Translations under genes and position numbers: made by a program | Notes under the pieces: generated by a model | The model's database searches: none | The model's input: only the letters and a program-made list of their open reading frames with translations | What the model was told of the DNA's origin: nothing | Shown here: one piece after another, positions 2,975-49,721 of the stretch | How positions within the stretch are numbered: the stretch's first letter is position 1 | Layout: every line of letters starts with the position of its first letter | Origin: Nonomuraea antri | Lineage (GTDB): Bacteria > Actinomycetota > Actinomycetes > Streptosporangiales > Streptosporangiaceae | NCBI RefSeq assembly: GCF_013283785.1 | Contig: NZ_JABCPZ010000005.1 | Location: 1-64,000 of the forward strand | Direction: 5' to 3' | Length of the DNA stretch: 64,000 nt

Positions 2975-3561
2975 CAAATGACGATCACCTCCGGGTCCTT
3001 CATTAGGAGGAAGTTGGGGCTCGGCCAGGGCGCGCGACTTATGAAAGCCCTGTGAAACGTCGACAATCAGCGGAAGTTGCAGTAGTAACAAGGGTAACGG
3101 CGCGACCCCAGAACCGCCCAAGATCGGCATGTAGCGTAGTTTCTTCGAGCATCGCTGGGCCCATTCAACGATTTACGGCCTACGGTCTTCGCTTCATACA
3201 TGATTTCGCGATACGCATATTGATCGTTACATAACGCTATCGGTCGACGGCCTGCAGGTCGGTGCGTATTCCACGAAAGCGCACGCTACGAAACCCGTGC
3301 CCAGCGGGTCGGGACCCTTTGGGTGCATGGATCCGCGAAGTGCTGGCGAACGATGACAGCGAACGGAAGTGTTTGCGCGGATGGCCCATGTTCGGAGTAG
3401 ATACGTGCAGGTGGAACGAGGGTGATCGCCGGATCGGCGATCACCGCCCTGTCGCGAGCTGTGACACTCCTTGGATTACGCAGGGGCGCATGGCTGGGCC
3501 AGGCGGCGTGATCCTGGTGGCAACTGAGTGGGCAAGCGTGGACGCTCGTGAGTGGGCCGAG
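2975..3561. other. Low-GC intergenic region
   Basis: About 590 bp between two minus-strand hypotheticals. It is locally AT-richer than the window average (for example around 3180-3240). A plus-strand frame at 3262-3594 is open but has weak codon bias and no recognisable product. I see no RNA gene or clear repeat. Confidence 0.45.
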
Positions 3562-40775: not shown

Positions 40776-40974
40776 CAGTCGCCTCCCAGCGGATGTCGTG
40801 CACGACAGAATACGATTCTGTTACCCGGAGGTATACCCGGTTTCGGGGGACGGCAGGCTGCTGGGGACACGGGTTCATCACAAGTGCCGGAAGTTGTGGC
40901 GTTAGGCCTGCGTTACAGGTGGTTGCGACCCTAAGATCTACACTCGGTCTATTTGTGTGTGATCGGAGTGTCCC

Positions 40975-42423
40975 GTGACTCGGTGGCGCAAGGCGTTGCT
41001 CGCCGCATCGGTCGGATCCGTGGCTGCCTTAGGTCTAGTGGCGTTGCACAACGCCCCTGCCGCCGCCGCACCCGCCAACCTCGTGGTCAACTACAACTGC
41101 AAGCCTGCTCCGGGAACCACGAGGAGCATCGTCAAGTACGGCGATGTCAAGCTGGAGACGCGGCTCACCTTCGCCACCGACCTGTACAAGGGCGAACCGC
41201 TCAACTTCACCTGGAAGCTCGACCAGATCGGGGTCAACCGCTTCCTGTCGCCCGGCTACTACGAGGCCGGCGGCACGGTGCACGTGGTCGGCAAGGTCGA
41301 GCTCGCGAGCAGCTGGTTCGGGACCGTCAAGCCGCAGGGCGAGGCCACCCAGGCGCAGGCGTTGCGCCCGGAGTCGGTGCTCTCGCTGCCGGAGACGCTC
41401 TCCGACCCCGCGCACATGCATGAGACCGGCACCATCAGCGTCACCCCGAGCGACATCGAGGTCGACTTCCTGCCGCCCGACGGCGCCGCACTCGTCAACG
41501 ACGGCAACGACAACGACAACCCGTCGGATCTGCAGATCCAGTACGGCGGAGCGTGGACGTCGCTGGACGACCGGCCGTCCTCGGAGAACCACGAGCACAA
41601 CGACCTGCACGCGACCAGCCAGTCCGGCGCCTCCGCCGAGCTCAAGTTCGTGGGTACCGGCGTGCAGTACATCGGCCCCAAGGACAAGGACGCGGGCCCG
41701 GTGGACATCTACCTCGACGGCGAGAAGGTGGCCACGGTCAACCCCTCGCGCGACGAGTCCGACGACCCGGTCAACTCCGACCTCGACGGCGGCTTCGTCA
41801 TCTGGGAATCCCCGGTGCCGCTGAAGTACGGCGAGCACACCATCAAGATCGTCAACGCTTCCGCCAAGGAGGCCTGGCTGGACGCGTTCCGGGTGATCAC
41901 CGACTCCTCCCGGGTGCCGACCGGATACCACAAGGCGATCTGCACGCTCATCAGCGACCCGGTCTCCATCGAGGTGACCGTCAAGGAGCGGACGACTCAG
42001 CCGCCGACGAGCAACCCGCCGTCCAGCACTCCGCCGCCCACCAGCGGCGGCCCGACGACGCCTGGGCCGACCACCAACGGTCCGTCCACGCCGCCGCCGA
42101 CCACCAACCACCCCGGTCCCGGGCATCCCAACCCGCACTACACCTGGCCGACCGGACGGCACGTGGCCGTGGCGCCCCCGGCCACCAGCACCACCACGAC
42201 CACGGCCACACCCACGAAGACCGGCGCCACCGCCACCAAGTACGTCAAGGCGCAGGTGGCCAAGACGCCCCAGGGCGGTGTGGACACCGGCGAGGCGCCG
42301 GAGAGCCCGGCGAACGCCCCGTACGGCCTGATGGCCGCCGGATCCGTGATGCTGATCGGCAGTGCCGGCAGTGGGCTGCTGCTGCGCAGGCGTAAGGCCG
42401 CGCACGCGGGAGGAGTGAAGTGA
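40975..42423 (+). CDS. Cell-wall-anchored protein 1 with non-LPXTG sorting signal
   Basis: 482 residues from GTG 40975. A signal peptide (residues 1-32), then an Ig/beta-sandwich-like domain (35-170, Cys42). Residues ~185-310 form a galactose-binding-like module (SGASAELKFVGTGVQYIGPK, VDIYLDGEKVATVN, KYGEHTIKIVN). A Thr/Pro-rich wall-spanning region follows (340-430), then the sorting signal TPQGGVDTG at 431-439, a TM at 449-470 and the basic tail RRRK. The signal is not LPXTG or LAXTG. The next gene, a sortase, overlaps its stop codon by one base. It is inferred to be a surface glycan-binding or adhesive protein. Confidence 0.8.
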   Translation: MTRWRKALLAASVGSVAALGLVALHNAPAAAAPANLVVNYNCKPAPGTTRSIVKYGDVKLETRLTFATDLYKGEPLNFTWKLDQIGVNRFLSPGYYEAGGTVHVVGKVELASSWFGTVKPQGEATQAQALRPESVLSLPETLSDPAHMHETGTISVTPSDIEVDFLPPDGAALVNDGNDNDNPSDLQIQYGGAWTSLDDRPSSENHEHNDLHATSQSGASAELKFVGTGVQYIGPKDKDAGPVDIYLDGEKVATVNPSRDESDDPVNSDLDGGFVIWESPVPLKYGEHTIKIVNASAKEAWLDAFRVITDSSRVPTGYHKAICTLISDPVSIEVTVKERTTQPPTSNPPSSTPPPTSGGPTTPGPTTNGPSTPPPTTNHPGPGHPNPHYTWPTGRHVAVAPPATSTTTTTATPTKTGATATKYVKAQVAKTPQGGVDTGEAPESPANAPYGLMAAGSVMLIGSAGSGLLLRRRKAAHAGGVK

Positions 42424-43193
42424 TGTCCGAGCGGAAGACGCCGATGCAGCGGGCGATGCCCGGGTTGCTGATCGCCGGCTCGCTGGCCGGTGTCGGCGCC
42501 GTCATGGTGGGCCTGCTGTCGCTCGCCCCGACCGTGGACGACGGCTCCAGCCCCGCGCTGGTGGCCCAGGACCAGCCCGGCGTGCAGATCGAGAACGCGG
42601 GCGCGTTCGTGCTGCCCGCCACCGTGGGTCCCGGCGGCGACGCGCCGCTGACCCCGGCCAGGCTGGAGGCGCCGCCGCCCCCGGCCGCCCTGCCCACCGT
42701 GGCCCCCATCAAGGCGCCCAAGACGAAGGCGGCCAAGGCCAGGCCGACGCGGATCAGGATCCCGAAGCTCAAGGTCAACGCCCCGATCGGCGCGGTCACC
42801 GTGGACATCAAGGGCAACCTGGGCGTCCCGCCGCTGTCCAGGCCGAACCAGACCGGCTGGTACCGCTTCTCGCCGGTCCCCGGCGAGGTCGGCCCGGCGA
42901 TCATCAACGGCCACGTCAGCACCCGCAAGGGCCCGGCCGTCTTCGACCGCCTGCGCAACCTGGCCAAGGGCGACCAGATCTACGTCTACCGCTCCGACGG
43001 CAAGGTCACCCGGTTCACGGTGAGCGGCATCGAGCAGGCCAGCAAGTCCGCGTTCCCGACCAACCGCGTGTACGGGAACACGAACGACTCACAGCTTCGG
43101 TTGATCACGTGTGGCGGCGTCTACAACAAGCAGGCGCACAGCTACACGGACAACATCATCGTGTACGCAACGTTGTCCAAGAAGAAGGGCTGA
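42423..43193 (+). CDS. Sortase, class E/F-like (partner of wall protein 1)
   Basis: 256 residues; ATG 42423 overlaps the upstream stop (TGATG) with GGAGGAG eight bases before. TM anchor near 12-33, a Pro-rich linker, then the sortase barrel from ~108 (RIRIPKLKVNAPIGAV, GWYRFSPVPGEVGPAIINGH). His164 (INGHVS) and Cys230 (LITCGG) are the catalytic pair. The segment after Cys, VYNKQAHSYTDNIIVYA, has Asp243-Asn244 where class A sortases have the catalytic Arg 13 residues after Cys; there is no Arg there. Proposed to join TPQGGVDTG-type signals to the wall. Confidence 0.87.
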   Translation: MSERKTPMQRAMPGLLIAGSLAGVGAVMVGLLSLAPTVDDGSSPALVAQDQPGVQIENAGAFVLPATVGPGGDAPLTPARLEAPPPPAALPTVAPIKAPKTKAAKARPTRIRIPKLKVNAPIGAVTVDIKGNLGVPPLSRPNQTGWYRFSPVPGEVGPAIINGHVSTRKGPAVFDRLRNLAKGDQIYVYRSDGKVTRFTVSGIEQASKSAFPTNRVYGNTNDSQLRLITCGGVYNKQAHSYTDNIIVYATLSKKKG

Positions 43194-43195
43194 GG

Positions 43196-43215
43196 GAAAC
43201 CCGGGTGTGGGTTTC
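43196..43215 (+). other. Intercistronic hairpin between the two sortase cassettes
   Basis: GAAACCC (43196-43202) pairs with GGGTTTC (43209-43215) around a 6-nt loop, just after the first sortase stop. It may be a weak terminator separating the two cassettes. Confidence 0.45.
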
Positions 43216-43230
43216 ACGGTTTACGGGAAC

Positions 43231-43260
43231 TTGACAGGGACAGTTCGTAGGATCCTTACC
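43231..43260 (+). promoter_or_regulatory. Candidate vegetative promoter of the second sortase cassette
   Basis: TTGACA at 43231-43236 (perfect -35), 18-bp spacer, then CTTACC at 43255-43260 (poor -10). Placed 66 bp before the start of wall protein 2, it would give a short leader. Confidence 0.5.
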
Positions 43261-43325
43261 TAACCGTGACCCACGGCTGCAATTCTGGTACGCCTGTTGA
43301 AACTGCGCTGAAACGGAGAAGGACA

Positions 43326-44186
43326 GTGCCGACGTCCAAGGCGCACCGACGCCTTGCCATCAAGTCATCTGCTCTGGCTCTTCTCGGTGCGGGTATCTTC
43401 GGCGGGTTACCGGCCATCGCGGCTCTCGCGGAGCCCGTGACCGTCACGTACACCTGTGTTCCGCAGGGTGGCGGGAACAGCGTCTCGGTTCCCTTCGAGA
43501 TGGAGCTGGAAGCCCCCTACACGACGCCGACCCCCAGCTCGACCGTCACCCTGAGCTGGGTGATCAACCAGCCGACCTCCACCGCCAGCGGCACACCGCT
43601 GCCGGCGTTGTCGAGCATCGCGCCGACGAGCACGATCGGGGCCACGGGCACGATCAGCCCGTCGGGCAGCGCCCTTCCTTCGGCGCAGGTGACGGCGACG
43701 GCCGTGGCCACGAACTACGCCAGCGTGGCCGCCCGGTCCCCGATGCCGCTGGCCACCATGGACTTCGTGGTCAAGCCGACCGCCACCGGCAACGTCATTC
43801 TCAAGGGCGCCGGTTTCTCGCTCAGCGTGAACGGCACCGTCTGGTACAACTGCGCCCCCGGCACCGGCGGCGGCCCGTCGATGACGCTGACCGTCGCCAC
43901 CGGGACCAGCACCGCCACCACCAGCGCCAGCAACTCGCCCACCACGTCCAACTCGCCGACGAACACGCAGACGTCCAGCAGTCCCAAGCCGACCAAGACC
44001 ACCACCCACTACAAGACCATCACCCCCAGCAGGAAGTCCCAGACCCCCAAGGCGGGTGCGGACACCGGCTTCGGCGGTGACATGGGTCCCGACGGGCGGA
44101 TCTTCATCCTGGCCGGCGGCGCGCTGATCGGCGCCGCGGCGGTCGGCGGGCTGGTCATGCGACGGCGTTCCGTCCGCAAGGGCTGA
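43326..44186 (+). CDS. Cell-wall-anchored protein 2 with the same sorting signal
   Basis: 286 residues from GTG 43326, GGAGAAGG just upstream. A signal peptide (1-36), then a beta-rich domain (VTVTYTCVPQGGGNSVSVPF..., Cys44 and Cys176) that looks homologous to the first domain of wall protein 1 and resembles DUF6801-type domains. A Thr/Ser-rich linker (185-240) leads to the sorting signal TPKAGADTG at 240-248, a TM at 259-277 and a basic end RRRSVRKG. The next gene, its sortase, starts 5 bp after the stop. The C-terminal layout matches wall protein 1 without being LPXTG. Confidence 0.8.
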   Translation: MPTSKAHRRLAIKSSALALLGAGIFGGLPAIAALAEPVTVTYTCVPQGGGNSVSVPFEMELEAPYTTPTPSSTVTLSWVINQPTSTASGTPLPALSSIAPTSTIGATGTISPSGSALPSAQVTATAVATNYASVAARSPMPLATMDFVVKPTATGNVILKGAGFSLSVNGTVWYNCAPGTGGGPSMTLTVATGTSTATTSASNSPTTSNSPTNTQTSSSPKPTKTTTHYKTITPSRKSQTPKAGADTGFGGDMGPDGRIFILAGGALIGAAAVGGLVMRRRSVRKG

Positions 44187-44191
44187 GCGGC

Positions 44192-44947
44192 GTGTCGGGG
44201 CACTATCCGTACGGCGGCGCGCCGGTTCCGCCCGAGGACAAGGGCAGTACGGCGCTCAGGACCGTGCTGATCGTGGCGGCCATCGCGGGCATCGTGACCG
44301 TGGTGGCCGGGCTGCTGATCGTGGTGAAGTCGCCGGAGGAGTACGGCCTGGCGGCCAGGGACACCCTGGAGCTGCAGGCGCAGCCGAAGGAGAAGGCGAG
44401 CGGGCAGCCGCAGCAGGCGCTGTTCCAGGCGGCGCCCGAGGTGCCCGCCCCGCTGCCGCCGATCAAGGCCGCGCCGGCGATGCTGCCGTCCAGCCCGACC
44501 CGGCTGATCATCAGGAAGCTGGGGATCAACGCCCCGGTCAAGTCCCTCGGCCTGGCCAAGGACGGGACGATCCAGGTGCCGGCGGCGGAGAACTCGAATC
44601 TGGTCGGCTGGTACCGGAACATGTCCACCCCCGGCGAGGCCGGGCCCGCCGTGATGCTCGGGCACAAGGACACGCGCACGCGCAGCGCCGTCTTCAGCCG
44701 GCTGTACGAGCTGAAGAACGGTGACACGATCGAGGTCAAGCGGCAGGATGGCATCACGGCCGTGTTCCAGGTCGGCGGCATCGAGCAGGCGAACAAGAAG
44801 ACTTTCCCCACCCAGCGCGTCTACGGCACGTACGAGAACGCGCAGCTGCACCTGATCACCTGCGGCGGCACGTACGACCGGACGAGCGGACACTACACCG
44901 ACAACATCATCGTCTACGCGACGATGACGAGCTCCTATCGAAGCTGA
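44192..44947 (+). CDS. Sortase, class E/F-like (partner of wall protein 2)
   Basis: 251 residues from GTG 44192. TM anchor near 25-45, linker with Pro, catalytic barrel from ~103 (RLIIRKLGINAPVKSLGLAK, VGWYRNMSTPGEAGPAVMLG). His158 (LGHKD) and Cys224 (LITCGG) are catalytic; after Cys comes TYDRTSGHYTDNIIVYATMT, again Asp237-Asn238 at the expected Arg position. It is distinct from sortase 1 (for example, MLGHKDTRTR against INGHVSTRKG) but shares the YTDNIIVYAT end, so the two are paralogs, each with its own substrate. Confidence 0.87.
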   Translation: MSGHYPYGGAPVPPEDKGSTALRTVLIVAAIAGIVTVVAGLLIVVKSPEEYGLAARDTLELQAQPKEKASGQPQQALFQAAPEVPAPLPPIKAAPAMLPSSPTRLIIRKLGINAPVKSLGLAKDGTIQVPAAENSNLVGWYRNMSTPGEAGPAVMLGHKDTRTRSAVFSRLYELKNGDTIEVKRQDGITAVFQVGGIEQANKKTFPTQRVYGTYENAQLHLITCGGTYDRTSGHYTDNIIVYATMTSSYRS

Positions 44948-44961
44948 TCGCGGAGGCGGGC

Positions 44962-45621
44962 ATGGGCTGGATGGCGAAGCGGAGACTGCGTACTGGCCCC
45001 ACGGCGGCACTGCCCGCCAAACCGGCGCACGACGAGCTGCTGCGGCTCGTCCGGCTGGCCGATCCCGACGCCAGGAGCGATGGCGGCGACATCGTGGCGG
45101 TGGACGTGCGCATCCACGCCCCGGTCGAGGCCGAGCCCGAGCTGGTGGGCGGCGAGCTGGAGAAGGTGTGGGCGTGCCGGGTGTCGGCTGAGGGCCCGCT
45201 GCCGTTCGACTTCTTCGACCGCTACCTGGCCGAGGGCCTGGCCTTCCGGCTGGGCGGGCTGGCGGTGTGCCGGGGCGAGGTGAGCGATCCCGCCGACGCC
45301 GACCAGGGTGGTCCGGCGGTGATCGTCCCGGTGCGTCCGGAGCCGGAGGAGCTGGCGCCGCTGCTGGAGCTGCAGGAGGACGGGTTCACCTTCACCGCGG
45401 GCGAGGTCAGGGCGGCGCTGGTGCCGCAGGCGGGCCGGCCGCCGGCGGTGCGCGATCTGCTGCCGTACGCCACCGAGTTGACCGCGATCGAGTTGCGCGG
45501 TGACGAGCCGGTCAAGCTGGGCACGCTCGCGCTGGAGCTGTCCGAGGCCTTGAACGGCCTGGTCGTGGACCGGTGGCGGTTCCGGGTCGATACGGCGGAG
45601 GACCTTCTGCCTCCGGCGTAG
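44962..45621 (+). CDS. Unknown soluble protein downstream of the sortase cassettes
   Basis: 219 residues from ATG 44962 with GGAGG five bases upstream. No signal peptide or TM. Acidic and Leu/Val-rich with strand-like stretches (GGDIVAVDVRIHAPVEAEPE, LAFRLGGLAVCRGEVSDPAD, IELRGDEPVKLGTLALELSE). Family not recognised. It is separated from sortase 2 by 14 bp and ends the cluster, so it may be cotranscribed with it. Confidence 0.6.
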   Translation: MGWMAKRRLRTGPTAALPAKPAHDELLRLVRLADPDARSDGGDIVAVDVRIHAPVEAEPELVGGELEKVWACRVSAEGPLPFDFFDRYLAEGLAFRLGGLAVCRGEVSDPADADQGGPAVIVPVRPEPEELAPLLELQEDGFTFTAGEVRAALVPQAGRPPAVRDLLPYATELTAIELRGDEPVKLGTLALELSEALNGLVVDRWRFRVDTAEDLLPPA

Positions 45622-47243: not shown

Positions 47244-47837
47244 TTATCGGCCGACCAGCTGGCGCTCGAACCCGGTCACCATGGCCAGCAGCCCGGCGTC
47301 GAACCACTGGTCGTAGAACGCGGCCGCGGCCGGCTCCTGTGCGGTGCCGGGGGTGGTGCCGGGGGTGGTGCCGACCTGGGCCAGGGCGTGGCCCAGGACG
47401 TACACGCCGACCGACTGGACGGCGGTCAGCGCGTCGGACTGCGCGACGCCGCCCGCCTCGAACCGTGTCAGCAGCCCGGTGAGCAGGCGCAGCCCCAGAT
47501 CGACGTCCACCGGGTGGGTGGCCAGCAGCGGGACGGCGTTCGGATGGGCCAGCAGCACCCGCCGGTACGACGCGCCGAACGCCATCAGCGCCTCCGGCCA
47601 GGCCGTCTCCTCGGGCTGCTCGGTGACGGACTCGGCGAAGATCCGGTTGACCACCTCGGCCAGCAGCGCCTCCCTGTTCGGCACGTGCCGGTAGAGGGAC
47701 ATGGCCGCGACCCCGAGTACGGTGCCCAGGCGGCGCATGGTCAGGGCGTCGAGGCCTTCGCCGTCGAGGATCTCGACGGCCGCCGCCACGATGCGTTCCG
47801 TGGTCAGCACGGCCGGCCGGCCGGGTCGTCCCTTCAT
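47244..47837 (-). CDS. TetR-family transcriptional regulator
   Basis: 197 residues from ATG 47837. HTH: VLTTERIVAAAVEILDGEGL, DALTMRRLGTVLGVAAMSLY, RHVPNREALLAEVVNRIFAE. The C-terminal half is of the TetR_C type. A TTPGTTPGT duplication (47342-47372, GTGCCGGGG repeats) near residue 160 is a slippage-prone insert. The ATG lies within the 4-bp ATGA overlap with the upstream membrane-protein gene, so both are coupled. A 36-bp palindrome 17 bp upstream of that membrane gene is the likely operator. Confidence 0.92.
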   Translation of the reverse strand: MKGRPGRPAVLTTERIVAAAVEILDGEGLDALTMRRLGTVLGVAAMSLYRHVPNREALLAEVVNRIFAESVTEQPEETAWPEALMAFGASYRRVLLAHPNAVPLLATHPVDVDLGLRLLTGLLTRFEAGGVAQSDALTAVQSVGVYVLGHALAQVGTTPGTTPGTAQEPAAAAFYDQWFDAGLLAMVTGFERQLVGR

Positions 47838-48265
47838 GGGGTCAGCGTAGCGGCGAGCGTGGTCGCCAGCATGATCACGGACAGCACTCCCACCACCAGG
47901 TGCTGGACATCGATGACCACGTCCCGGCCCGCGGTCGGCAGGATCTTGAGCGTGCGGGCGTAGTCGGTGCGGTAGACCTCGTGCTGCGCCTCGGTGCTGA
48001 ACCCGAAGTAGGGCAGCCACCAGCTCCACACGTGCCCGGCCAGGATCAGCGCGCACAGGGCGCTGGCCGCGATCAGTGACCAGGTCTGGTCCAGCGCGAT
48101 TCCGGCCGCGATGAGCAGCGGGAACGGGTAGTTGATCGCGGCGGCGAGCAGCCGGTGCTTGAGGTTGCCCGGGGCCAGGTCGTTGAGCGGGTACATCGGG
48201 ACCCATTCGGTGAGTGCGAGCCAGCCGAGCCAGACGAAGGGGACGACGAACGCGATCGTGTGCAT
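47834..48265 (-). CDS. Integral membrane protein coupled to a TetR regulator
   Basis: 143 residues from ATG 48265, GAGGAG upstream. About four TM: AFVVPFVWLGWLALTEWVPM, INYPFPLLIAAGIALDQT, LIAASALCALILAGHVWSWW and the C-terminal VVGVLSVIMLATTLAATLTP, with a conserved-looking WLPYFGFSTEAQHEVYRTDY loop. Transcribed with the TetR gene. Its function is unknown; the TetR is expected to control it. Confidence 0.72.
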   Translation of the reverse strand: MHTIAFVVPFVWLGWLALTEWVPMYPLNDLAPGNLKHRLLAAAINYPFPLLIAAGIALDQTWSLIAASALCALILAGHVWSWWLPYFGFSTEAQHEVYRTDYARTLKILPTAGRDVVIDVQHLVVGVLSVIMLATTLAATLTP

Positions 48266-48281
48266 GAACCGCTCCTCTTCT

Positions 48282-48317
48282 ATTTGTGTACGACGTAAGC
48301 TTACGTCGTACACAAAT
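48282..48317. promoter_or_regulatory. Perfect 36-bp palindrome, probable TetR operator
   Basis: Eighteen-base arms, ATTTGTGTACGACGTAAG on the left half (48282-48299) and its exact complement on the right (48300-48317), with no spacer. It sits 17 bp upstream of the start of the membrane gene on the minus strand, overlapping its likely promoter (TTGTGT and GTACAC as -35/-10-like boxes inside it). The same bases are read as the C-terminal codons of the serine hydrolase frame. Confidence 0.8.
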
Positions 48318-49721
48318 TCTGCGCAAGCGCGTCAGGCGAACGGCCGCGGTCAGCGTCCCGGCGACGGCGGCGACCAGGAGGGTGATCGACAGCGGCACGG
48401 CGAAGTAGGTGAGCTGGCTCCAGGTGACCGCACGGCCGTTGAGCAGGAACGAGACCAGGTTCGGATAGAAGGCGAACAGCGCGGCGGGCAGCAGCACCGG
48501 GATCATCCGCAGCCCGATCCGCAGCCGGCTCCGGCCCGCCCGACGCGCGGCCCAGCGGCGGGCCCGCAGCACGCCCAGCGCGCCGAGCGCGGCCGACAGC
48601 AGCGCGATCGCGGCCAGCACCAGCTCAAATTGCTGCCGCTCACCCCCGCCCGGCGCCGGCGTCCTGCCCTCGCTCATCGCCGCCAGCCCCATGGCCACCG
48701 CGTACGTCTCGTCGGTCAGCGCGGCGTTGTTCGTCATGACGGCGAACCCGTAGCCGGTCTTCGGCGAGATGGCCTGGGCGGCGTTGTAGGTGAACAGGTT
48801 GCCCGAGTGCGTGAGCAGCCCGCTCTCGCCGTCGACGCCCCAGCCCATGCCGTAGTCGCGCAGCTCGCCCGGCGTGTGCATGGTACGCAGGCTCTGCGCC
48901 GAGACCAGCGGGGCGCCGTCGCCGGTCTGCGCGCTCAGCCACCTGCCCATGTCCGCGGCGGTGGTGATGACGCCGCCGCCTCCGCTGTCGTCGTGGAAGC
49001 CGGGCATCTCCGGACGAGACACCCACAGGCCGAAGACCGAGTTGTAGCCGTCGGCCGGCTTGATCTCGTCGTCGCTGAGCGCGCTGGTCTTCATGCCGAG
49101 CGGGCCGAAGACGCGCTCGCGCATGTAGTCGCCGAAGCGGCGGCCGCTCGCGGTCTCGACCAGCCGCGCGGCCAGGTCGTAGTTGACGTTGCAGTACTCC
49201 CACTTGGCACCGGGCTCGCCGGCGAGCTCGTCGTCGGCCAGGCGGGCGGTGTAGTCGGCGAGCGAGGTGGCGCTCTCCAGGTCGTCGATGTCGATCGTGC
49301 GGTCCGACAGGCCGGAGGTCTGGTTCAGCAACTGGCGCACGGTGATCCTGGACGCCCGCGGGTCGGCCATGCGAAATCCCGGCAACTGGGCGGCCACCGG
49401 CTCGTCGAGCGCGATCTTCCCGTCCTCCACCAGCGTCATGACGGCCATCGCGGTGAACGACTTGCTCAGCGAGGCCACCCGCATGGGGGTGTCGGCGGTG
49501 ACCGGGGCGCCCGAAGAGTCATGGCCGTAGCCGGCCGCGTGCACGGTCTTGCCGCCCTGGGTCACCACGACCGACATGCCGGGCACGCCGCTGGACTCCA
49601 TCGTCTGCCGGACATAGGCGTCGATGGCGGCGGGGGTCAGCTCGGCCGCCGAAGCGGTGGCCGCGGCGGGGGTCGCGGTGAACGTCAAGGCCGCGGCGAG
49701 GCCGATCAACAGGGATTTCAT
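48318..49721 (-). CDS. Serine hydrolase (beta-lactamase/class C-like) with membrane C-terminus, stop codon lost
   Basis: 468 residues of recognisable protein from ATG 49721: signal peptide (1-28), serine beta-lactamase-like domain with SLSK (nucleophile Ser84 and Lys87), the YCN motif (EYCNVNYDLA) and GVITTAADMGRWLSAQTGDG, then about three TM (LVLAAIALLSAALGALGVLR, MIPVLLPAALFAFYPNLVSF, VPLSITLLVAAVAGTLTAAV). Homologs would stop soon after RLTRLRR. Here the frame has no stop: it enters the 36-bp palindrome (residues 469 on) and stays open to 47246, the end of the TetR gene, giving a formal 825-codon frame. The coordinates given are the recognisable part. Confidence 0.85.

What the first reader, a model, noticed from the sequence alone, without database searches (positions are those of the whole stretch)
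40975..44947. Two back-to-back sortase/substrate cassettes using a shared non-LPXTG signal, TPxxGxDTG
Seen: two wall proteins (482 and 286 aa) each with signal peptide, Thr/Pro linker, the motif TP[QK][GA]G[VA]DTG, one TM and a basic tail, each followed at once (1-bp overlap, 5-bp gap) by its own sortase. Known: class A/B signals are LPXTG/NPQTN-like and class E is LAXTG-like. Inference: this is a dedicated, specialised anchoring system with paralogous sortases each matched to a nearby substrate. The two substrates share a first domain and may assemble on the same surface structure.
Basis: partly seen in the sequence, partly recalled or inferred. Interest (0 to 1): 0.7.

Follow-up and report, generated by a model that had tools for sequence, protein, structure and literature searches.

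The report
Two class F sortase–substrate gene pairs
A soil actinomycete carries two neighbouring gene pairs, each a surface protein followed by a class F sortase, and the proteins share a glycine-rich tail signal that is not the classic LPXTG; similar signals sit beside many other actinobacterial class F sortases, whose targets have been unclear.

Summary
In detail: S1 (40975-42423), sortase a (42420/42423-43193), S2 (43326-44186), sortase b (44192-44947). Both enzymes pass NCBI's class F cut-off; both substrates end in TP-x-x-G-[AV]-x-T-G, one TM and a basic tail. The nearest named loci are Nonomuraea. All four genes are seen in 52 of 80 named loci (Streptosporangiaceae and kin). A looser signal, [GAP][AVMPI]-x-[TSA]-G-x-[GA], lies in the protein upstream of 72 of 106 other class F sortases, against 1 of 30 class E loci (pattern set after seeing most loci). 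NCBI already holds a GVDTG sorting-domain model (NF058571), but S1 and S2 miss its cut-off. The published Arg-to-Asn change of actinobacterial class F enzymes is present. Best reading: class F pairs anchoring two related surface proteins by a non-LPXTG signal; cleavage, wall linkage and enzyme-substrate specificity are inferred. New variant of a known kind; its value is that it makes the open class F substrate question testable.

The parts
40975..42423 (+). S1: secreted protein, 482 aa; N-terminal hydrophobic signal peptide, Y-x-C...C domain with an inserted CE2_N-like beta-sandwich, Thr/Pro linker, sorting signal, TM, basic tail
41065..42009 (+). S1 mature domain used for the model (AF2 pLDDT 93.3); first part homologous to S2, middle part CE2_N-like
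42265..42291 (+). S1 sorting signal TPQGGVDTG (inferred cleavage between T and G)
42322..42420 (+). S1 TM stretch and basic tail
42420..43193 (+). sortase a, class F (NF033748 194 bits, cut-off 166)
42912..42914 (+). sortase a catalytic His codon (inferred from alignment)
43110..43112 (+). sortase a catalytic Cys codon (inferred from alignment)
43152..43154 (+). sortase a Asn where class E has its catalytic Arg
43194..43325 (+). intergenic stretch before S2 with DNA conserved among Nonomuraea loci; possible promoter of the second cassette
43326..44186 (+). S2: secreted protein, 286 aa; signal peptide, Y-x-C...C domain, Thr/Ser/Pro linker, sorting signal, TM, basic tail
43422..43907 (+). S2 mature domain used for the model (AF2 pLDDT 93.8, mostly beta strands, no close PDB match)
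44043..44069 (+). S2 sorting signal TPKAGADTG
44070..44099 (+). S2 conserved extension after the signal, FGGDMGPDGR
44100..44183 (+). S2 TM stretch and basic tail
44192..44947 (+). sortase b, class F (NF033748 200.9 bits, cut-off 166)
44861..44863 (+). sortase b catalytic Cys codon (inferred from alignment)
44903..44905 (+). sortase b Asn where class E has its catalytic Arg

Best explanation
Two class F sortase-substrate pairs. S1 and S2 are secreted by Sec, held in the membrane by the C-terminal TM and basic tail, and cut between T and G of TP-x-x-G-[AV]-x-T-G by the class F sortase encoded directly behind each; the new C-terminal Thr is then joined to a peptidoglycan precursor, leaving the Y-x-C...C domain (with a carbohydrate-binding-type insert in S1) on the cell surface behind a Thr/Pro stalk. 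Shown: gene order, close coupling, families, motif, shared domain, conservation. Inferred: cleavage site, wall linkage, that each sortase prefers its neighbour, and that S1 binds glycan.
For: Both sortases pass the class F cut-off, with His and Cys invariant in 16 of 16 aligned sequences. Both substrates have the full anatomy. S1-a-S2-b in 52 of 80 named loci (36, plus 8 with an extra S2-like gene; plus 8 whose S2 the pattern had missed, seen). A start codon in the sortase frame lies within -11 to +20 nt of the substrate's stop in 85 of 88 a-pairs and 67 of 71 b-pairs. Positions outside the collecting pattern are conserved: in S1-type, T at -7 82/88, G at -3 80/88, A or V at -2 86/88, [EVQ]AP after TG 71/88; in S2-type, T at -7, G at +3, G at +7 and G[PA]D[GA]R 71/71. 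A looser signal precedes 47 of 59, 16 of 29 and 9 of 18 other class F sortases (shuffle means 7.8, 2.2, 1.6, which drops three repeated places's 48/60, 16/29, 10/20) against 1 of 30 class E loci. 52 of 68 listed GVDTG-model hits of genomes G000-G060 lie within 2 kb of a listed class F sortase (from the capped lists). Signal subtype follows sortase clade: 18 changes, shuffled mean 62.6, 0 of 200 as low; sortases behind S2-type signals form one side of a branch, support 99.
Against: No biochemistry anywhere here. In two Sinosporangium loci (L250, L251) S1 keeps the signal but ends without TM or tail. In 24 of 80 loci the pattern saw only S1-a: 8 of these show an S2-like gene with its downstream cut off by the locus end, 2 end on their contig, and 14 have no b within about 3.5 kb (read; in one of the 14, L260, b lies about 10 kb off, L053). 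The one class F enzyme reported in the papers seen, from Cutibacterium acnes, is said to use LPXTG (passages in PMC13257024 and PMC7913060). A quadruple class F deletion in Actinoplanes missouriensis had no visible phenotype (PMC13251363). 34 of 106 other class F loci did not show the loose signal. The loose pattern was written after seeing most of these loci. P(-6), [GA](-4), [TSA](0) and G(+1) are fixed by the pattern that collected the rows (eight S2 proteins with another residue at -4 were missed by it). On the tree the generic GGxxTG subtype is not clustered (14 changes, shuffled 15.1, 111 of 500 as low). S1 and S2 miss the cut-off of the curated GVDTG model.
Confidence: 0.75

Rival explanations
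1. Same anchoring, no private pairing: either class F sortase (or any of the other four in the genome) handles both substrates, and adjacency only reflects duplication of an ancestral pair.
For: The genome has six class F sortases over the cut-off. S1 and S2 share a domain and the signal core. 16 of 68 listed GVDTG hits lie away from any listed class F sortase, so some substrates may be served in trans (lists capped). Two S2-like substrates precede one sortase b in 8 loci.
Against: Signal subtype follows sortase clade; the sequence after TG differs between the two types ([EVQ]AP in 71 of 88 against G[PA]D[GA]R in 71 of 71); each cassette can occur without the other close by.
Confidence: 0.35
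2. The GVDTG stretch is just a conserved hinge next to the TM; S1 and S2 are tail-anchored membrane proteins, and the sortases act on something else.
For: No experiment shows cleavage. The constant GPD[GA]R after TG would stay on the membrane stub, which suits a membrane-proximal role. LPXTG is the reported substrate of the one class F enzyme described in the papers seen.
Against: The stretch recurs in proteins of very different size and make-up placed before class F sortases and is rare beside class E sortases (1 of 30). 13 of 13 proteins with 2-7 tandem copies adjoin a class F sortase frame (three of the 13 loci had been fetched through the sortase). Two S1 proteins keep the signal without the TM, which does not suit a mere TM hinge.
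Confidence: 0.12
3. S1 and S2 are joined into a pilus-like polymer, with b adding S2 to S1.
For: Two related surface proteins and two sortases in one locus; oligo-Gly after TG in S2 could serve as a nucleophile (inference).
Against: Neither enzyme passes the class C cut-off; no Lys is among the invariant or nearly invariant columns of S1 or S2; cassettes occur singly.
Confidence: 0.05

Closest known systems
NCBIfam NF058571 GVDTG sorting domain
   Same: Same core (P-x-GGVDTG, TM, basic tail) and association with class F sortases (52 of 68 listed hits within 2 kb).
   Different: S1 and S2 score 18.4 and 23.1 against a cut-off of 29 (S2's stretch 27.5 in the six-frame search). Of four relatives scanned, L183 S2 and L228's S2-like gene scored 25.2 and 25.3, and L220 S1 and L222 S2 gave no hit. 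S2-type tails add GxG[GA]xxGPD[GA]R; S1-type mostly add EAP.
Class F sortase (NCBIfam NF033748)
   Same: Both enzymes pass the cut-off; His and Cys conserved; Arg replaced by Asn as already published for Actinobacteria (PMC6998099 passage).
   Different: Tandem paralogues in a conserved locus, each behind a substrate. No paper listed in my searches names such a signal for this group.
Class E sortase with LAXTG substrates (Streptomyces SrtE1, chaplins; PMC5148588 passages)
   Same: S2's GADTG has the A-x-T-G of LAXTG.
   Different: Gly, not Leu, at the first position; enzymes score far below the class E cut-off; class E keeps its Arg.
Cutibacterium acnes SrtF (Di Girolamo 2019, not read; known through passages in PMC13257024 and PMC7913060, and recalled)
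   Same: Named class F.
   Different: Reported to recognise LPXTG; I did not have its sequence to compare with NF033748.

Membership tests
class F sortase (NF033748) | score over curated cut-off (166 bits) | tested here: met
   194.0 and 200.9 bits
class F sortase (NF033748) | conserved His and Cys of the active site | tested here: met
   invariant in 16 of 16 aligned
sortase superfamily, canonical triad | catalytic Arg on strand beta8 | tested here: not met
   x-N in 262 of 274 class F sequences, 7 not parsed, 5 other; hhalign against 23 class E sequences pairs their Arg with this Asn. Already reported for actinobacterial class F (passage)
GVDTG_CTERM (NF058571) | score over curated cut-off (29 bits) | tested here: not met
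   S1 18.4, S2 23.1 bits
GVDTG_CTERM (NF058571) | GVDTG-like core, TM, basic tail, class F sortase beside it (my description; the model's own text was not seen) | tested here: met
LPXTG substrate (Pfam Gram_pos_anchor) | LPXTG motif and score over cut-off (20 bits) | tested here: not met
   S1 10.8 bits, S2 no hit; no LPXTG in either C-terminus
class E substrate | LAXTG | tested here: not met
   G at the L position in both
sortase-built pilus | class C sortase | tested here: not met
   class C model 24.3 and 14.5 bits, cut-off 160
wall-anchored protein | covalent link to peptidoglycan | not testable with these tools
   needs wall fractionation and mass spectrometry

The most novel reading that the evidence does not exclude
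Actinobacterial class F sortases are a separate sorting pathway: a His-Cys-Asn enzyme reading a glycine-rich signal, G-[AVMP]-x-[TA]|G-x-G-G, that extends past the cut (GPD[GA]R in the S2 type), with a dedicated enzyme per substrate; in Asp-rich relatives a single precursor carries up to seven such signals and could be cut several times.
Probability: 0.4. Interest if true: 0.72.

Novelty: new variant of a known kind. Interest (0 to 1): 0.5.

Why it matters
Passages I read call class F function or role unknown (PMC6998099; PMC13251363), and the A. [quoted passage not shown] A defined signal and a ready pair of enzyme and substrate turn the question into simple peptide-cleavage and deletion tests, and would let more actinobacterial surface proteins be recognised.

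Tried and rejected
Class E membership rejected (26.5 and 27.7 bits against 160). Pilus assembly rejected as main reading (no class C enzyme in the locus). DUF6801: weak in 8 of 53 S1 relatives, best E 0.0011, not claimed. CE2_N: 25 of 53, best E 1.2e-4, but not in the window protein itself, so called CE2_N-like only; Foldseek lists glycoside hydrolases and CBM6-type modules, but also Cry toxins and a viral capsid protein, at low TM-scores (at most 0.34 for the query among the 50 rows shown). S2's domain has no convincing PDB match (best E 7.3e-4; TM at most 0.42 for the query among the 50 rows shown). The bare DNA motif count alone is weak. A first pair of patterns (48 of 60 family loci, 13 of 29 phylum loci, 2 of 4 own loci, 0 of 30 class E; shuffles of the 60: mean 3.6) was replaced by a looser one. 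Sequence search of solved structures found one weak relative, 4d70, a sortase family protein (E 8.3e-6). Elements of the conserved upstream DNA were not resolved. Papers: searches; none of the papers listed was seen to describe a GVDTG-type signal (searches listed only part of their hits). Only passages were read of PMC13251363, PMC5148588, PMC13257024, PMC7913060 and PMC6998099.

Rows dropped: L039 left out; 171 substrates reduced to 159 distinct (88 S1-type, 71 S2-type). Tree: 95 of 222 labelled sortases; 58 without label not used. Alignments for folding: 53 of 77 distinct S1 and 26 of 49 distinct S2 segments. Class E alignment: 23 of 30 loci. One search drops L079 (same place as L256), L286 (as L129) and L289 (as L139) from the 109 loci. 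51 of the 60 family loci were picked from places with no listed GVDTG-model hit within 2.5 kb (list), which works against the signal. The 100 loci include some places fetched twice.
Full report
What is there. Four genes in a row on the + strand: S1 (40975-42423), sortase a (GTG 42420 or ATG 42423 to 43193), S2 (43326-44186) and sortase b (44192-44947). Both substrates have an N-terminal hydrophobic signal stretch, a globular domain, a Thr/Pro- or Thr/Ser-rich linker, TPQGGVDTG or TPKAGADTG, one TM stretch and a basic tail. Both sortases score over NCBIfam's class F cut-off and far below the class E, C and D cut-offs. The substrates match NCBI's GVDTG sorting-domain model NF058571 but miss its cut-off (18.4 and 23.1 bits against 29), so the kind of signal is already catalogued, while these proteins do not reach the model's cut-off.

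Conservation. The 80 best loci found with a class F profile in named genomes are this locus or its first cassette, from Nonomuraea and related genera, with two metagenome-assembled genomes. By pattern, 36 show S1-a-S2-b, 8 have an extra S2-like gene before b, 8 show S1-a-b with S2 unseen, 24 S1-a, 3 a-S2-b and 1 a alone. The 8 unseen S2 proteins are all present, with K, E, D or S at -4 of the motif, so 52 of 80 have all four genes in the pattern's sense. Of the 24 S1-a loci, 8 show an S2-like gene and are cut off by the locus end, 2 end on their contig and 14 have no b within about 3.5 kb (read); in some genomes b lies further off (L053, L057) and in one b's cassette was seen without a (L055). 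S1's signal is present in 79 of 79 loci with sequence upstream of a; in two (L250, L251) the protein ends right after the signal, without TM or tail. An acyl-CoA dehydrogenase homologue lies in 91 of 100 loci examined and a thiolase homologue in 58 (many loci end before its place), so the place in the chromosome looks old (some places are held twice).

The signal. In 88 distinct S1-type proteins: T at -7 in 82, G at -3 in 80, A or V at -2 in 86, T in 78 and S in 10 at position 0, then E/V/Q-A-P in 71. In 71 distinct S2-type proteins: T at -7 and T at 0 in 71, G at +3 in 71, G at +7 and G[PA]D[GA]R in 71. P at -6, G or A at -4, [TSA] at 0 and G at +1 were fixed by the pattern that collected the rows; the 8 S2 proteins that it missed differ at -4 but keep TG-x-GG-xx-GPDGR. 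Such conservation after TG is unusual for an LPXTG-like signal, where recognition is centred on the pentapeptide (general knowledge); it may mean that the enzyme reads both sides of the cut, or that the membrane stub has a role.

Generality. A looser signal, [GAP][AVMPI]-x-[TSA]-G-x-[GA] before a TM and basic tail, occurs in the protein just upstream of 47 of 59 other class F sortases of the family, and 16 of 29 and 9 of 18 across the phylum; residue shuffles give 7.8, 2.2 and 1.6 on average, at most 15, 8 and 6 (with three repeated places had 48/60, 16/29, 10/20). Beside 30 class E sortases it occurs once (shuffles 0.8), although there every TM-tail ORF of the locus was counted. An LP/LAxTG or -TA match occurs in 1 of the 106 class F loci. 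The pattern was set after looking at most of these loci, so the counts describe rather than test. Of the four other class F loci of this genome over the cut-off, two match; the third has VPKGHPETGGGG and the fourth the tandem-repeat protein described below.

Pairing. On a tree of 95 class F sortase domains (of 222 labelled), signal subtypes need 18 changes against a shuffled mean of 62.6 (0 of 200 as low); sortases behind S2-type signals are one side of a branch (support 99) and those behind S1-type need 3 changes. The generic GGxxTG subtype is not clustered (14 changes, shuffled 15.1, 111 of 500 as low). Start codons overlap or closely follow the substrate's stop in 85 of 88 and 67 of 71 pairs. 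This fits dedicated pairs, but inherited neighbourhood would give the same picture.

Substrate domains. Profile comparison places S1's first domain and S2's domain in one family (probability 96.5, E 8.7e-10). AlphaFold models are confident (mean pLDDT 93.8 for S2; 93.3 for S1). S2's is made of beta strands and has no close match. In S1 a second sandwich lies between the two conserved cysteines; 25 of 53 relatives, not the window protein itself, hit CE2_N weakly, and Foldseek lists glycoside hydrolases and CBM6-type modules among weak matches, beside unrelated beta proteins. Glycan binding is therefore a guess with some support.

Enzyme. His and Cys are invariant in 16 aligned sequences. The strand after Cys reads D-N-[IV]-[IV]-V-Y-A in most; in 262 of 274 class F sequences Asn stands where the class E Arg aligns. 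This is already in print for actinobacterial class F (passage in PMC6998099), while PMC13257024 states a His-Cys-Arg triad for all classes (passage).

Tandem signals nearby. Thirteen distinct proteins in the fetched loci carry 2-7 copies of P-x-GGV[DE]TG-x-GG-like motifs between Asp-rich runs; each adjoins a class F sortase frame, one of them (L263) being fused to it. Three of these loci had been fetched through the sortase, the others through the GVDTG model. One lies in this genome (contig C568, L041).

Known and unknown. The passages I read say that class F roles are unknown, that C. acnes SrtF uses LPXTG or acts like SrtA, and that deleting all four class F genes of A. missouriensis has no visible phenotype. 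No paper listed in my searches was seen to describe this signal; most subscription papers are not held.

Verdict. Real, conserved and well explained as two class F sortase-substrate pairs with a non-LPXTG signal. New variant of a known kind; interest about 0.5, because it makes an open question testable.

Noticed in passing
L041:4688-5845 (own genome, contig C568; same as L006), and L010, L011, L012, L014, L019, L025, L092, L106, L263, L265, L267, L268: 13 distinct proteins with 2-7 tandem copies of P-x-GGV[DE]TG-x-GG-like motifs between Asp-rich runs; all 13 overlap a class F sortase reading frame end to start or are fused to it. One precursor with several sorting signals would be unusual.
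   Followed up: partly
L263:1746-2708: In one genome three such copies are fused in frame to the class F sortase domain itself (both NCBIfam models over cut-off in one protein). Could be an assembly error.
   Followed up: no
43194-43325 and 40845-40974: DNA upstream of S2 and of S1 is strongly conserved in the loci aligned, nearly all Nonomuraea (26 and 37 sequences, starts picked by script), including TTGACAGGGACAGTTCGTAGGATC before S2 in the window; suggests a separate start for each cassette.
   Followed up: partly
L250 and L251, S1 ending at 3180: In two Sinosporangium loci S1 stops right after the sorting signal, without TM or basic tail.
   Followed up: no
L183:4136-5455 and other Nonomuraea S2 proteins: Many S2 orthologues are about 430-470 aa (stop to stop) with four or five or more cysteines, which may mean a doubled Y-x-C...C domain.
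   Followed up: no
44962-45621: A 219-aa protein without Pfam hit follows sortase b and has homologues in 51 of 100 related loci.
   Followed up: no
47244-49721 (- strand): One 825-aa open frame joins a beta-lactamase-family domain and a TetR-type regulator; a frameshift or a real fusion.
   Followed up: no
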